Origin: a virus
Strand: one strand, 5' to 3'
IMG/VR virus record: IMGVR_UViG_3300036829_000104
Location: 1-64,000 of that record
Length of the DNA: 64,000 bases
Below the pieces are notes generated by a model. The model ran no database searches. It was not told the origin of the DNA and worked only from the letters and a program-made list of their open reading frames with translations. A program made the translations under genes and the position numbers. Below are positions 47,865 through 52,992 of this stretch, one piece after another. Each line of letters starts with the position of its first letter. Within the stretch, counting starts at the first letter, position 1.

Positions 47865-47883
47865 TTGTCCGCTTACAAGACAA
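47865..47883 (-). promoter_or_regulatory. Shared operator, site 2
   Basis: TTGTCTTGTAAGCGGACAA (19 bp) in gene direction, one base shorter than the other sites, between the promoter and the Shine-Dalgarno of the ArdC/J gene. A further half-site, GTTAAACGGACGACA, lies at 47912-47927. Confidence 0.7.
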
Positions 47884-47992: not shown

Positions 47993-48166
47993 TTACTCGG
48001 CGACGCGGGTGAGGACCGGGAAGTTCGGGCGGGCCAGGTTGATCTCGGTGACCTTGTAATCGGTGCCCTCGACGTTCACGACCTGGCCGATCTGGACGAC
48101 GCCCGGGACGAAGACCTTGGTGAGCTGCTTGGCGGTCTTGCTGGTCTTGGCGGTCTTGGTGGCCAT
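47993..48166 (-). CDS. Small basic protein, GTDYKV family copy 1
   Basis: 57 residues. A Lys/Thr/Ala repeat N-terminus (ATKTAKTSKTAKQLTK) is histone-tail-like. The core GQVVNVEGTDYKVTEINLA and the ending RPNFPVL are shared with the gene at 50433. Both genes have the shared operator. A small nucleoid-like or OB/SH3 fold is possible. Confidence 0.75.
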   Translation of the reverse strand: MATKTAKTSKTAKQLTKVFVPGVVQIGQVVNVEGTDYKVTEINLARPNFPVLTRVAE

Positions 48167-48189: not shown

Positions 48190-48209
48190 TTGTCTGCTTA
48201 CAAAGACAA
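48190..48209. promoter_or_regulatory. Shared operator, site 3
   Basis: TTGTCTTTGTAAGCAGACAA read on the minus strand. TTGTCT, 17 bases, TAATGT upstream is a good promoter for the 57-residue gene. The site also stands 62 bases before the ParB-like gene on the plus strand, so it may serve both. Confidence 0.75.
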
Positions 48210-48271: not shown

Positions 48272-49054
48272 ATGCCAGCCAAGTGGATCGCCACCCGGGA
48301 ACTGCCGCTCGCGGACCTCGAGCGGTTCCCCGGCAACGCCCGCCGCGGCGACGTCGACGAGATCCGCAAGAGCATCGCCCGCCACGGCCAGTACCGCGCC
48401 ATCGTCGTCCGCCAGCACGATGACCGCTACACGGTCCTTGCGGGGAACCACACCGCCGACGCGCTCGAGGCCGAGGGCAGCAGCACCGCCCGCTGCGAGC
48501 TGATCGAGTGCAGCGACGACGAGGCCGTCCGTATCAACCTCGCCGACAACCGCACCGCCGAGCTAGGCGGCTACGACAACGAGGCTCTCGCCGCGCTCCT
48601 GTCCACGCTGGATAACGACTACGACGGCACCGGCTGGGCCGAGGAAGACATCACCGCCATCCTCGAAGAGTCCGACGGTGTCTTCGGCGGCGACGGCGAA
48701 TGGGACGGCGGCGACGGGGAGCCTGCCCCGAACCGCGGGGAGCTGCTCGCGCTCGCCGGCGTCACCATCGGGGAACCCCGGCACAAGGTCGAAACCGGCC
48801 AGGTCTGGGCGCTCGGCGACCACCGCCTCGTCATCGCGGACCTGTTCACCGGCTGGGAAGCATGGGCGCCGCTGCTCGACGGAGAGGTCACGTTCCTGCC
48901 GTACCCGACACCGCTCGCCCCGCACGCCCCCGGCTACGGCCCGCTCATCATGGTGCAGCCCGAGGAGTTCCTCGCCGGCCACCTGCTCGACAAGTGGCAG
49001 GACATCACCGGCGGGGCACCCGTCGTCGTCAACGCCGAGGTGGCCGCGGCGTGA
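48272..49054 (+). CDS. ParB/Srx-like protein with decayed methylase tail
   Basis: 260 residues, AGGAG before the ATG. Residues 8-110 are a ParB/sulfiredoxin-like domain (LERFPGNARRGDVDEIRKSI, GQYRAIVVRQ, TVLAGNHTADAL). The tail (about 170-260) aligns in pattern with the DNA methylases often fused to ParB domains (VETGQVWALGDHRLVIADLF), but where the catalytic D/NPPY should be it reads FLPYPTP. This tail is therefore probably only structural or DNA-binding. GTGA overlap with the transglycosylase gene implies joint function. Confidence 0.8.
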   Translation: MPAKWIATRELPLADLERFPGNARRGDVDEIRKSIARHGQYRAIVVRQHDDRYTVLAGNHTADALEAEGSSTARCELIECSDDEAVRINLADNRTAELGGYDNEALAALLSTLDNDYDGTGWAEEDITAILEESDGVFGGDGEWDGGDGEPAPNRGELLALAGVTIGEPRHKVETGQVWALGDHRLVIADLFTGWEAWAPLLDGEVTFLPYPTPLAPHAPGYGPLIMVQPEEFLAGHLLDKWQDITGGAPVVVNAEVAAA

Positions 49055-49839
49055 CGGTCAAGAACACTGGCGGCGGCACGTTCGACCCGTCCGCGAGGCC
49101 CCTGTACTTCGCTGCAGGCACGAACTGGACCGGCAACGCGGTCAGATGGCCCCGCCACGTCCTCGTCGCGGTCAACGACATCCTCAACCCCGCCGACGAG
49201 CAGAAACTCCTCGTTCAGCACCTGGACGATGGCCGTATCGTCCTCCTGGACTCGGGCATCTTCTGGCTCACGAACCAGCACAAGCGCGCCCACGGCGTCA
49301 CGATGGACGAGGCGCTCGCCCTCCCGCCCGAGGAGATCGACGGGTTCGACGAGCTGTTCACCCGGTATGTGCAGGTCGTCAAGCGGTACGGGGACCGCCT
49401 GTGGGGCTGGACCGAGCTGGACCAGGGCGGCGCGGTGAACAAGCGCCGCACCCGCGCCCGCCTCGAGGCCGAGGGAATCACCCCCATCCCCGTCTACCAC
49501 CCGCTGAACGACGGCTGGGACTACTTCGACGAGCTCGCCGCCGGCTATGACCGGATGTGCTTCGGGAACATCGTCCAGGCATCCCGCCCGTCCCGGGTCC
49601 GGCTGCTGCACACCATGTGGGAGCGGCACCGCGCCTACCCGGACCTGTGGATCCACATCCTCGGCCTGACCGCCAACGAGTGGTGCATGTCCGTCCCGCC
49701 GGACTCCTGTGACTCCTCGACCTGGCTGTCCCCGCTGCGCTGGCCCGCGGTCCGCACCGAGACCGCGATGCTCCGCAAGACCCGCGACCTCGGCGCGCGG
49801 TTCTCCTACGACATCGACAACCCGGACACCCCGGCATGA
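49051..49839 (+). CDS. dpdA: TGT-like transglycosylase (DpdA-type)
   Basis: 262 residues from GTG. LYFAAGTNW at the start, LLDSGIFWL (Asp67), LWGWTELDQGG (Asp124), GNIVQ, IHILGLTANEW form the barrel motifs of the small phage tRNA-guanine transglycosylase relatives. These exchange guanine in DNA for a 7-deazaguanine. The presence of queD, queE and folE 850-2500 bases downstream makes this reading strong. Cys212 and Cys220 could bind zinc. Substrate could be preQ0, CDG or a later base. Confidence 0.8.
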   Translation: MTVKNTGGGTFDPSARPLYFAAGTNWTGNAVRWPRHVLVAVNDILNPADEQKLLVQHLDDGRIVLLDSGIFWLTNQHKRAHGVTMDEALALPPEEIDGFDELFTRYVQVVKRYGDRLWGWTELDQGGAVNKRRTRARLEAEGITPIPVYHPLNDGWDYFDELAAGYDRMCFGNIVQASRPSRVRLLHTMWERHRAYPDLWIHILGLTANEWCMSVPPDSCDSSTWLSPLRWPAVRTETAMLRKTRDLGARFSYDIDNPDTPA

Positions 49840-49985
49840 CACGGGCCGACTCGTTCGGCATGTGCTCCGACGCGGTGACAGCGATCAACCTGGTGTGGAG
49901 GCACGCCGGCGCCCGGACAGCCGAACTGCTCGGCCAGCCCGCCCATCCCGCGCACGTCATGAACGAGAGGCCAGCAGCCAAATGA
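49836..49985 (+). CDS. Hypothetical 49-residue protein
   Basis: Helical (CSDAVTAINLVWRHAGARTA), ATGA overlaps at both ends, so clearly in the modification operon. Function unknown. Confidence 0.55.
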   Translation: MTRADSFGMCSDAVTAINLVWRHAGARTAELLGQPAHPAHVMNERPAAK

Positions 49986-50338
49986 CCAGCCCCGGCACCG
50001 TAACCGTGTGGGCGACCGCGCAGCTGCCCGGCTTCCACCGCTGGCCGGACGCACCGCCGTCCCGCGGCTACCTGTGCGACAGGCACCGGCACGTGTTCCA
50101 CGTCAAGGCAACCGCCGCGGTGAGCCACGACGACCGGGACATCGAGTTCCACGACCTGTCCGACATGATCCGGACGTGGTGGGGACCTGGTGCCCGGGAG
50201 TGCGGGAGCGCGTCGTGCGAGTCGCTGGCGAGGGAGCTTGCCGGGTACCTGGGGGATCAGGGGGTCGTCGTGGCGTCGGTGGAGGTGTCGGAGGACGGCG
50301 AGTCGGGGGCGGTGCTCACGCTCCCGCCGGACGTCTGA
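49982..50338 (+). CDS. T-fold (QueD-like) candidate protein
   Basis: 118 residues. HRHVFHVKATAAVSHDDRDI EFHDLSDMI resembles in spacing the HGH...EFxxLK segment of QueD/PTPS proteins. SASCESLARELAGYL lies where QueD has its conserved Cys/Glu helix, and the C-terminal strand VASVEVSEDGESGAVL also fits. Phage genomes contain such proteins without assigned role. It may be a second T-fold enzyme acting on a 7-deazaguanine or pterin precursor. Confidence 0.6.
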   Translation: MTSPGTVTVWATAQLPGFHRWPDAPPSRGYLCDRHRHVFHVKATAAVSHDDRDIEFHDLSDMIRTWWGPGARECGSASCESLARELAGYLGDQGVVVASVEVSEDGESGAVLTLPPDV

Positions 50339-50394
50339 AATGTTGTCCCGCTTCCTTTTCCGGGCTTGTCTTCTGCCGGTCTCATCGGTGAGTA

Positions 50395-50414
50395 TTGTCT
50401 TTGTAAGCGGACAA
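50395..50414 (+). promoter_or_regulatory. Shared operator, site 4
   Basis: TTGTCTTTGTAAGCGGACAA, followed by CACTTCAGGAGG and the ATG at 50433. Upstream CTTGTCTTC with GAGTAT 18 bases later gives a promoter whose -10 touches the operator. Confidence 0.8.
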
Positions 50415-50432
50415 CACTTCAGGAGGCACCCG

Positions 50433-50588
50433 ATGACCAGCACCACGACCACCCCGGCCCAGATCACCGCCCACGTCCCCGCCGCCCGGTACGGTCAGGT
50501 CGTCACGATCGACGGCACGGACTACAAGGTCATCGAGATCAACCTGGCCCGCCCGAACCACCCGGTCCTCGCCCCGATCAGCAAGTAA
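50433..50588 (+). CDS. Small protein, GTDYKV family copy 2
   Basis: 51 residues; core GQVVTIDGTDYKVIEINLAR and ending PNHPVLAPISK match the 57-residue protein at 47993. N-terminus without the Lys repeat. Single-gene transcript closed by a terminator 18 bases later. Confidence 0.75.
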   Translation: MTSTTTTPAQITAHVPAARYGQVVTIDGTDYKVIEINLARPNHPVLAPISK

Positions 50589-50605
50589 CACCAGCCAGGC
50601 CCCGG

Positions 50606-50637
50606 CCCCGGCACCCCGCAGCGGAGTGCCGGGGTTT
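50606..50637 (+). terminator. Intrinsic terminator
   Basis: CCCCGGCAC-N11-GTGCCGGGG then TTT. Confidence 0.8.
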
Positions 50638-50691
50638 CCGCTTGCCCGCACCCGAGCCTTCACGGCCTCCAACCCTGCAGAGGTAGTCCCC

Positions 50692-51114
50692 TTGCACGAA
50701 GTCACCGTGCGCCACAACTTCGAGACCGCTCACCGGCTGCCGCACCTTCCCGGCAAATGCCAGTCCCTCCACGGCCACTCGTGGTGGGCGCACGTCACCG
50801 TCTCCGCCCCCGAGGTCGCCGCCGGGGTGCTGGTCGAGTTCGGCCCGTTCAAGGCCGCGCTCCGCGCGTGGATCGACACCCACCTAGACCACGGGTCGAT
50901 GCTGGGCCCCGACGACCCGCTCGTCCCGCTGCTGCGCGCCGAGGGCTGCAAAGTCCACGAGGTGCCCGGCTGGCCGACCGTGGAGAACGTCGCCGCCATG
51001 CTCGCGGAGGTCGCCGCGGCCGAGCTGGAGAACCTGGTCCGCGCACCGCACGCCACGGTGACCGGCGTGCGGGTCACCGAAACCCACGTGAACGAGGCCG
51101 CATGGCTGGCCTGA
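50692..51114 (+). CDS. queD: 6-carboxytetrahydropterin synthase QueD
   Basis: 140 residues from TTG, with GAGGT nine bases upstream. Zinc ligands His14, His27 and His29 (AHRL...LHGHS), catalytic Cys23 (GKCQSLHGH), the GVLVEFGPFKAAL segment, LDHGSML and the TETHVNEA end are all present. It converts dihydroneopterin triphosphate to carboxytetrahydropterin, the second step of 7-deazaguanine synthesis. It overlaps queE by 13 bases. Confidence 0.92.
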   Translation: MHEVTVRHNFETAHRLPHLPGKCQSLHGHSWWAHVTVSAPEVAAGVLVEFGPFKAALRAWIDTHLDHGSMLGPDDPLVPLLRAEGCKVHEVPGWPTVENVAAMLAEVAAAELENLVRAPHATVTGVRVTETHVNEAAWLA

Positions 51115-51824
51115 CCGTGACCGCGGACACCCTCGTCGTCGCGGAGGCGTTCGGCCCCACGGTGCAGGGCGAGGGCCCATCGGCCGGCCGGCAGGCGTCG
51201 TTCATTCGCCTCGGCGGCTGCGACCTGCACTGCACATGGTGCGACTCGGGGTTCACCTGGGACGCTCAGCGGTTCGACCTGCGCGCCGAACTGGTCCGCC
51301 GTGACGTCGACAGCATGCTCGCCGAGGTGCTGGGGTACGGGACGCCGCTCGTGGTGATCACCGGCGGGGAGCCGCTGCTGCACCAGAACCAGCCCGGATG
51401 GGACCGGCTCCTGACCGGTCTTGCGGCCGCGGACCGCGACATCGAGGTCGAGACGAACGGCACCCGCGCGCCGGGCGAGACCACGGCCCGCCTCGTCACC
51501 AGGTTCAACGTGTCGCCGAAGCTGAGCGGCGCCGGAGACCCGGAGTCCGCGCGCATCCGCCCGGACGCGCTGGCCGCGCTCGCCGCGACCGGCCGGGCGG
51601 TGTTCAAGTTCGTATGCGCCAGCCGCGCCGACCTCGACGAGGCAGCCCGCGTGGCGGCGCTCGCGGGCATCCCGCCCCGGCTGGTGTGGATCATGCCGGA
51701 AGGCACCGACCCGGCAACGCTCACCGCCCGGCTGCGGGAGCTCGCGGATCCCGCCGTCGCCGCGGGCTTCAACCTGACCACGCGGCTCCACGTGCTCGCG
51801 TGGGGAGATGAACGAGGACGATGA
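51102..51824 (+). CDS. queE: 7-carboxy-7-deazaguanine synthase QueE
   Basis: 240 residues. FGPTVQGEGPSAGRQASFIR precedes the radical-SAM cluster motif CDLHCTWC (Cys40, Cys44, Cys47); VITGGEPLL and VETNGT are the SAM-binding strands. It makes CDG, the first 7-deazaguanine of the pathway. The gene starts inside queD and ends in an ATGA overlap with folE. Confidence 0.93.
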   Translation: MAGLTVTADTLVVAEAFGPTVQGEGPSAGRQASFIRLGGCDLHCTWCDSGFTWDAQRFDLRAELVRRDVDSMLAEVLGYGTPLVVITGGEPLLHQNQPGWDRLLTGLAAADRDIEVETNGTRAPGETTARLVTRFNVSPKLSGAGDPESARIRPDALAALAATGRAVFKFVCASRADLDEAARVAALAGIPPRLVWIMPEGTDPATLTARLRELADPAVAAGFNLTTRLHVLAWGDERGR

Positions 51825-52396
51825 CCCACCAGCACGAAACCCACCCGGCCACGGCCCACGCCCGCGCGATGCTGACCGCCCTCGGCGTGGACTGCACGGG
51901 GGAGGACACCGCCGACACGCCGGCCCGCCTGGTCGGCGCACTCGCCGAGCTGACCGCGGGCCTCGAGCTCGACCCGGGCAGGCACCTCGCGGTGACCTTC
52001 CCGCCGCCGTCAGCTGACCCACCGATGGTGGTCGTGCCCGGCATCCCGATCTCCTCGGTGTGTGAGCATCACGTGCTGCCGTTCACCGGCACGGCCACGA
52101 TCGCGTACCTGCCAGCCGGGCGGATCGTCGGCCTGTCGAAGCTCGCCCGGGTGGCACAGGAGTTCGCGGCCCGCCCGCAGGTGCAGGAGCGCCTCGGGGA
52201 CCAGATCGTCACCGCGATCGACAAGCACCTCGACACGCGCGGCGCCGCGTGCATGATCACCGCCGTCCACTCGTGCATGACGCTGCGCGGCGCGAAGGCG
52301 GCCGGCGCGAAGATGGTCACCTCGCACCTGACCGGGCTGTTCCGGGAAGACGCCGCAGCGCGGGCCGAGTTCATCCAACTCGCCCGCACCGCCTGA
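51821..52396 (+). CDS. folE: GTP cyclohydrolase I FolE
   Basis: 191 residues. Zinc and active-site residues are complete: SVCEHHVLPFTG (Cys81, His83-84), GLSKLARV, and VHSCMTLRG (Cys152). It opens GTP to dihydroneopterin triphosphate, feeding QueD. Gene order queD-queE-folE covers the route to CDG, but no QueC is visible. Confidence 0.93.
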   Translation: MTHQHETHPATAHARAMLTALGVDCTGEDTADTPARLVGALAELTAGLELDPGRHLAVTFPPPSADPPMVVVPGIPISSVCEHHVLPFTGTATIAYLPAGRIVGLSKLARVAQEFAARPQVQERLGDQIVTAIDKHLDTRGAACMITAVHSCMTLRGAKAAGAKMVTSHLTGLFREDAAARAEFIQLARTA

Positions 52397-52972: not shown

Positions 52973-52992
52973 TTGTCTCCTTACAAGGACAA
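52973..52992 (-). promoter_or_regulatory. Shared operator, site 5
   Basis: TTGTCCTTGTAAGGAGACAA in gene direction, followed by CACTTGAGGAGG. It is the most symmetrical copy (TTGTC...GACAA). Upstream CTTGTCTTC and GATTAT form the promoter. Confidence 0.8.

What the first reader, a model, noticed from the sequence alone, without database searches (positions are those of the whole stretch)
48272..52396. Compact 7-deazaguanine DNA-modification cassette without QueC
A ParB-like protein, a TGT/DpdA-like transglycosylase, a 49-residue protein and a T-fold protein form one coupled unit, followed by queD-queE-folE. From known chemistry, FolE, QueD and QueE lead to CDG. QueC, which makes preQ0, is not visible. 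So the inserted base may be CDG or a derivative, or host QueC supplies preQ0. The ParB-like partner suggests a targeting role.
Basis: partly seen in the sequence, partly recalled or inferred. Interest (0 to 1): 0.85.

Follow-up and report, generated by a model that had tools for sequence, protein, structure and literature searches.

The report
Phage 7-deazaguanine DNA-modification cassette lacking QueC
This actinobacterial phage carries a gene set for swapping guanines in its DNA for a 7-deazaguanine base; the usual last enzyme, QueC, is replaced by a small QueD-like protein, so the base is probably plain 7-deazaguanine rather than preQ0.

Summary
The cassette is real and correctly placed. The 262-aa protein is a divergent DpdA/TGT (TGT is the top structural match; catalytic motifs invariant), followed by queD, queE and folE. 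QueC is absent from the whole 83.6-kb record. (1) The "T-fold protein" (49982-50338) is a QueD paralogue that keeps the three zinc histidines and the purine-anchor glutamate but has lost QueD's catalytic Cys, Asp and His. It occupies exactly the slot that QueC holds in Rosebush-type phages. In about 220 loci the two never co-occur, and they replace each other several times on the DpdA tree. (2) The "49-residue protein" is the detached C-terminal end of DpdA. (3) The ParB-like partner looks like a ParB-methyltransferase whose catalytic core is gone. Best reading: the T-fold protein acts on QueE's product CDG, most likely decarboxylating it to 7-deazaguanine, which DpdA inserts. Host QueC is unlikely: four actinobacterial genomes carrying the closest prophages have none. 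The kind of system is known: Bipper was flagged in 2019, and dDG and dCDG in phage DNA were reported in 2023 (recalled, paper not readable here). The T-fold protein may be the predicted decarboxylase DpdL.

The parts
48190..48209 (+). operator/promoter-like repeat TTGTC-N10-GACAA upstream of the cassette; further copies at 50395-50414 (-) and 52973-52992 (+)
   Evidence: 4 matches in the window with up to 2 mismatches, 0 expected in shuffles; role inferred
48272..49054 (+). ParB-like DpdA partner: N-terminal ParB domain plus a shrunken, catalytically dead remnant of a DNA methyltransferase
   Evidence: PF02195, phrog_723 and phrog_498; alignment A5; remnant versus Gordonia phage Fugax gp85; adjacent to DpdA in 43 of 46 relatives
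49051..49839 (+). DpdA-like DNA guanine transglycosylase core (262 aa, GTG start), with D67-S68-G69 and S219-x-D221-S-S
   Evidence: phrog_887 E 1e-19; AlphaFold2 pLDDT 87.4; Foldseek top match TGT; invariant motifs in 42 sequences
49836..49985 (+). 49-aa ORF = C-terminal segment of DpdA, split off by a frame change with a 4-base overlap
   Evidence: aligns to the C-termini of both Kitasatospora DpdA copies (0 of 2000 shuffles as good) and weakly to L002/L003; relatives are about 290-350 aa and carry this segment fused
49982..50338 (+). T-fold protein (QueD paralogue, phrog_17812) in the slot of QueC; candidate 7-carboxy-7-deazaguanine decarboxylase
   Evidence: hhalign to QueD 97%, E 1e-10; Foldseek E. 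coli QueD TM 0.79; never together with QueC
50433..50588 (+). 51-aa ORF behind a copy of the repeat; paralogous to the ORF at 47993-48166 (-); probably not part of the pathway
   Evidence: translations; inserted between the T-fold gene and queD
50692..51114 (+). queD (6-carboxytetrahydropterin synthase), catalytic C23 and D66-H67 present; TTG start
   Evidence: PTPS E 7e-24, TIGR03367 E 2e-17 (below its cut-off), phrog_2389 E 3e-35; invariants
51102..51824 (+). queE (7-carboxy-7-deazaguanine synthase, radical SAM)
   Evidence: phrog_2076 E 2e-59, TIGR03365 E 6e-27; 46% identical to QueE of Mycobacterium phages
51821..52396 (+). folE (GTP cyclohydrolase I)
   Evidence: PF01227 E 6e-57; NF006826 above its cut-off

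Best explanation
A phage DNA-modification cassette. FolE, QueD and QueE make 7-carboxy-7-deazaguanine (CDG) from GTP. The 118-aa T-fold protein, which replaces QueC, then acts on CDG, most likely removing the carboxyl group to give 7-deazaguanine (DG). DpdA (262 + 49 aa in two overlapping ORFs) exchanges guanines in the phage DNA for that base, helped by the ParB-like protein, which binds DNA or DpdA. The result is protection from host restriction. Shown here: gene content and order, family and fold of each protein, conserved catalytic residues, absence of QueC, mutual exclusion of T-fold and QueC, no QueC in relevant hosts. Inferred: that CDG is the substrate, that the reaction is decarboxylation, that the ParB protein aids DpdA, and that DNA is modified at all.
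For: DpdA is TGT-like: phrog_887 E 1e-19, nearly all Foldseek matches below 1e-3 are tRNA-guanine transglycosylase, D67-S-G and D221-S-S invariant in 42 sequences. The T-fold protein is QueD-like: zinc histidines H19/H35/H37 and anchor E104 are invariant, while QueD's Cys is replaced by A/R/S/G and its Asp-His pair is gone. Same cassette order as Rosebush-type Laurie (ParB-DpdA-QueC-QueD-QueE-FolE-terminase) and Gordonia phage Sour, with the T-fold gene in place of queC. DpdA-anchored survey: T-fold in 44, QueC in 3 in the same slot, both in 0 of 49. T-fold-anchored: QueC in 0 of 78; QueC-anchored: T-fold in 0 of 79. Whole-record searches: no QueC above cut-off in 77 T-fold records, the window's included. 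States interleave on the DpdA tree with at least 3 well-supported switches. T-fold homologues in Cellulophaga phage phiST, Acidovorax ACP17, Xanthomonas X1 and others lie among queD/queE/folE. QueC uses CDG as its substrate (PMC13329287).
Against: No biochemical data. T-fold membership does not name the reaction, and other chemistry or a carrier role is possible. Loci were sampled by anchors and many are related, so counts are not independent. Bipper and Typha fill the slot with an unrelated 141-aa protein, so other ways of finishing exist. DpdA is split in this genome, so activity is not certain. DpdA structural similarity to TGT is modest (TM 0.44).
Confidence: 0.57

Rival explanations
1. 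CDG itself is inserted, giving dCDG in DNA. The T-fold protein is an accessory, for example a CDG carrier, or it acts on another step.
For: The minimal set FolE-QueD-QueE-DpdA yields CDG; the 2019 survey suggested CDG for Bipper, which lacks queC (PMC6884629); dCDG in phage DNA was reported in 2023 (recalled).
Against: The T-fold gene strictly replaces QueC, an enzyme that consumes CDG. A mere accessory would be expected together with QueC sometimes.
Confidence: 0.18
2. The T-fold protein converts CDG, free or in DNA, into another 7-substituted base not yet described.
For: Slot and exclusion evidence say only that it works at the CDG step. Its invariant R52, E55, S78-C79-E80 and D105 are new relative to QueD and do not by themselves name a reaction.
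Against: Amide or nitrile formation needs ATP, for which a 118-aa T-fold has no known site. No cofactor-binding partner gene was seen to be conserved beside it. Decarboxylation is the simplest.
Confidence: 0.12
3. The host supplies QueC, so DpdA inserts preQ0 made jointly by phage and host.
For: Many bacteria have QueC; the Bradyrhizobium genome carrying a related prophage does.
Against: Kitasatospora and three Amycolatopsis genomes carrying the closest prophages have no QueC above cut-off. In three of these four genomes the only QueE match lies next to the prophage T-fold gene. The T-fold protein would be unexplained.
Confidence: 0.06
4. The cassette is decaying in this genome: DpdA is split and inactive, and DNA is unmodified.
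For: DpdA reads out of frame after residue 262 and its last 49 aa sit in another frame.
Against: Catalytic residues all lie in the 262-aa part; the second ORF is open, overlapping and recognisably conserved; all other genes are intact. An assembly error of one base is also possible.
Confidence: 0.07

Closest known systems
Mycobacterium phages Bipper and Typha (L056, L058)
   Same: ParB - small ORF - DpdA - extra gene - QueD - QueE - FolE - terminase, no QueC; QueE 44% and FolE 48% identical, ParB 40% over 145 aa
   Different: The extra gene (gp4, 141 aa) shows no detectable similarity to the T-fold protein; DpdA only about 24% identical
Rosebushvirus phages (Laurie; Rosebush carries dPreQ0 in about 28% of Gs, PMC6884629) and Gordonia phage Sour
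   Same: Same gene order ParB-DpdA-X-QueD-QueE-FolE-terminase
   Different: X is QueC there, the T-fold protein here
Cellulophaga phage phiST (gp036-gp040) and Acidovorax phage ACP17
   Same: queD, queE, folE and a homologue of the T-fold protein, no QueC in the record
   Different: Different gene order; no ParB or DpdA of this subfamily detected nearby
DpdL, the 7-carboxy-7-deazaguanine decarboxylase predicted in Cui et al. 2023 (NAR, doi 10.1093/nar/gkad657; recalled from its abstract, text not held)
   Same: Would do the reaction proposed here; the T-fold family is the obvious candidate
   Different: I could not verify whether DpdL and this protein are the same family
E. coli QueD (PDB 4ntk)
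   Same: T-fold, TM 0.79; zinc histidines and anchor glutamate
   Different: Catalytic Cys, Asp and His of QueD absent
ParB-methyltransferase fusions such as Gordonia phage Fugax gp85
   Same: ParB domain, linker and the first and last pieces of the methyltransferase domain
   Different: About 170 residues with the DPPY and SAM-binding motifs are missing here

Membership tests
DpdA / tRNA-guanine transglycosylase superfamily | TIM-barrel TGT fold | tested here: met
   Model pLDDT 87.4; TGT (1s39 and others) top Foldseek match, prob 1.0, E 3e-4, TM 0.44, i.e. distant
DpdA / tRNA-guanine transglycosylase superfamily | Catalytic Asp of DSG motif and nucleophilic Asp | tested here: met
   D67-S68-G69 and D221 invariant in 42 sequences; equivalence to TGT D102/D280 assigned from knowledge of TGT
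DpdA / tRNA-guanine transglycosylase superfamily | Inserts a 7-deazaguanine into DNA | not testable with these tools
   needs LC-MS
Phage preQ0 cassette (Rosebush type) | DpdA with FolE, QueD, QueE | tested here: met
Phage preQ0 cassette (Rosebush type) | QueC | tested here: not met
   TIGR00364 finds nothing in the 83.6-kb record
QueD (for the 118-aa protein) | T-fold with zinc histidines and anchor Glu | tested here: met
QueD (for the 118-aa protein) | Catalytic Cys and Asp-His pair | tested here: not met
   Cys position A/R/S/G/K in 40 of 41; Asp-His segment missing
DpdL (CDG decarboxylase) | Sequence homology to DpdL | not tested
   no DpdL sequence or paper held
DpdL (CDG decarboxylase) | CDG to 7-deazaguanine activity | not testable with these tools
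   needs enzyme assay
ParB-DNA methyltransferase | ParB N-terminal domain | tested here: met
   PF02195 E 2e-4 (20 of 31 members match), phrog_723 and phrog_498
ParB-DNA methyltransferase | SAM-binding and DPPY motifs | tested here: not met
   absent; region is about 90 aa; no Pfam methyltransferase match
Bacterial DpdB | ParB/Srx-like ATPase partner of DpdA | not tested
   No DpdB sequence compared; PADLOC gave only a Type II methyltransferase match

The most novel reading that the evidence does not exclude
A widespread small T-fold family (at least 598 viral-contig candidates in one scan) is an uncharacterised CDG-converting enzyme that redirects the phage 7-deazaguanine pathway away from preQ0. 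It has been exchanged repeatedly with QueC in one slot, with DpdA kept, so that a single cassette type is re-tooled to write different bases. A gutted ParB-methyltransferase serves as DpdA's DNA-targeting subunit.
Probability: 0.35. Interest if true: 0.68.

Novelty: new variant of a known kind. Interest (0 to 1): 0.52.

Why it matters
Many phage 7-deazaguanine cassettes are annotated as 'preQ0 pathway'. If the T-fold protein is the branch-point enzyme, a single 118-aa marker tells which phages carry 7-deazaguanine instead of preQ0 in their DNA, many in groups where it is now 'hypothetical protein'. It also makes the repeated QueC/T-fold exchange a natural experiment on what base DpdA accepts and which restriction systems it evades, and gives a testable role to the ParB partner that goes with DpdA in both cassette types.

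Tried and rejected
Pfam, NCBIfam and PADLOC gave no useful match for DpdA or the T-fold protein; PDB sequence profiles found no TGT and only a weak PTPS match, so structure and profile-profile comparison were needed. Bipper gp4 as a divergent homologue of the T-fold protein: rejected, no similarity. The 49-aa ORF as an independent small partner: rejected, although a profile of all relatives' C-termini did not recognise it on its own; only close relatives do. Host QueC: tested and disfavoured. ParB C-terminus as active methyltransferase: rejected. Literature on DpdL could not be read.
Full report
What is there. The window is bases 1-64000 of an 83,597-bp virus record, a high-GC tailed phage or prophage whose terminase gene follows the cassette. 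On the + strand lie a ParB-like gene (48272-49054), a DpdA-like gene (49051-49839), a 49-aa ORF (49836-49985), a 118-aa gene (49982-50338), then, after a gap with a repeat element and a 51-aa ORF, queD (50692-51114), queE (about 51102-51824) and folE (51821-52396). Family searches support each assignment. The queE start is ATG 51102 or GTG 51117, since the codon at 51111 is CTG.

DpdA. The 262-aa protein has no significant Pfam or NCBIfam match but matches phrog_887 (queuine tRNA-ribosyltransferase, E 1e-19). An AlphaFold2 model from 37 relatives (pLDDT 87) finds tRNA-guanine transglycosylase as its top PDB neighbour and in 27 of 28 matches below E 1e-3. TM is only 0.44, so the relation is distant. 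DSG (D67) and SxDSS (D221) motifs and H150, H202 are invariant in 42 sequences. Relatives are longer, about 290-350 aa. A profile of all C-termini did not detect it alone, though adding it to the DpdA tail raised the score from 25 to 35 bits. So DpdA is split by a frame change at its 4-base overlap, either genuinely or by an assembly error.

The T-fold protein. The 118-aa protein belongs to phrog_17812 (unknown function; all 41 members tested match). Profile comparison with phage QueD gives 97% and E 1e-10; its model (pLDDT 94) superposes on E. coli QueD with TM 0.79. Invariant are the three zinc histidines (H19, H35, H37) and the glutamate E104 that in T-fold enzymes anchors the pterin or purine (roles from general knowledge of the superfamily). 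QueD's catalytic Cys and Asp-His are gone, and R52, E55, S78-C79-E80 and D105 are new invariants. It therefore should bind a related ring but do other chemistry than QueD.

It takes the place of QueC. In Rosebushvirus Laurie and Gordonia phage Sour the order is ParB-DpdA-QueC-QueD-QueE-FolE-terminase. In 49 viral loci found with this DpdA, the T-fold gene is downstream of DpdA in 44 (nearly always immediately), QueC sits in that slot in 3 (L026, L033, L045), a Bipper gp4-type gene in 1, and T-fold and QueC never occur together. Scans anchored on the T-fold protein (78 new loci; at least 598 candidates) and on QueC (79 new loci) give 0 co-occurrences either way. Among loci with QueE, 108 have T-fold only, 74 QueC only, 0 both, 3 neither. 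Whole-record searches with TIGR00364 found no QueC above cut-off in any of 77 T-fold records, the window's included. Loci are related and some are duplicates (for example L036/L077, L001/L061), so these are not independent trials, and the Fisher value printed should not be read as a probability. But on the DpdA tree the two states interleave, needing 7 changes, at least 3 of them forced by well-supported branches. Exchange in place with the rest kept is what one expects of two enzymes acting on the same metabolite. QueC's substrate is CDG (PMC13329287).

Mechanism. FolE, QueD and QueE make CDG. A 118-aa zinc T-fold without an ATP site can hardly make the amide or nitrile, so the simplest reaction on CDG is loss of the carboxyl group, giving 7-deazaguanine for DpdA to insert. 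From memory of the abstract of Cui et al. 2023 (cited in the papers, text not held), dDG and dCDG occur in phage DNA and a CDG decarboxylase, DpdL, was predicted. The T-fold homologue in Cellulophaga phage phiST, in a queD-queE-folE cluster without QueC, fits. By contrast, phage phi38:2, with QueC and QueF, shows no T-fold gene in that cluster. I could not check whether DpdL is this family.

Host supply. The closest DpdA relatives in genomes are prophages of Kitasatospora humi and three Amycolatopsis species (63-66%). None has QueC above cut-off (the weak matches are short fragments). In the Kitasatospora genome and two of the Amycolatopsis genomes the only QueE match lies next to the prophage T-fold gene. 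The Bradyrhizobium genome with a more distant prophage does have QueC. So host-made preQ0 is unlikely for this lineage, though the window's own host is unknown.

The ParB-like partner. It precedes DpdA directly in 43 of 46 relatives and is found with DpdA beside QueC too, so it serves DpdA, not the base. All 31 members match a ParB-methyltransferase profile (phrog_498), here over residues 9-191 only. The rest, conserved as PYPGP and VQPDxYIAGHxLDRY, resembles the first strand and last strand-helix of the methyltransferase of Gordonia phage Fugax gp85 (12.5 bits against 5.3 for the best of 500 shuffles), with about 170 residues, including the DPPY and SAM motifs, missing. It looks like a methyltransferase targeting protein emptied of its enzyme and reused with DpdA. 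That ParB domains are often fused to DNA methyltransferases is noted in PMC12783734.

Novelty. The 2019 survey (PMC6884629) already listed Bipper as lacking queC and possibly carrying CDG. Not found described in the papers that could be read: the divergent DpdA subfamily, the T-fold/QueC exclusion and exchange, the origin of the 49-aa ORF, and the ParB-methyltransferase remnant.

Noticed in passing
L060:7069-8903: The Kitasatospora humi prophage has two tandem DpdA paralogues behind one ParB gene.
   Followed up: partly
window 48190, 50395, 52973 (degenerate at 47865 and 53985): Operator-like repeat TTGTC-N10-GACAA with TTACAA core in intergenic regions around the cassette; 0 expected by chance; not found in the rest of the record or in the relatives checked. 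May be a repressor or ParB-protein site.
   Followed up: partly
window 47993-48166 (-) and 50433-50588 (+): Two small paralogous proteins (57 and 51 aa, sharing TDYKVxEINLARPNxPVL) near the cassette.
   Followed up: no
L056:2047-2469, L058:2043-2465, L047:8954-9373: Bipper gp4 family (141 aa, H-x-H motif) fills the QueC slot in some phages without queC; unrelated by sequence to the T-fold protein; another candidate CDG-converting enzyme.
   Followed up: partly
L050:18156-19379 (-): Serine-recombinase-like protein near the right end of the record, outside the window, suggesting a temperate phage (assigned by eye).
   Followed up: no
L241:4657-5831 (Cellulophaga phage phi38:2): A ParB-like gene next to DpdA also in a Bacteroidota phage with QueC and QueF, so the ParB-DpdA pairing is wider than actinophages.
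   Followed up: partly
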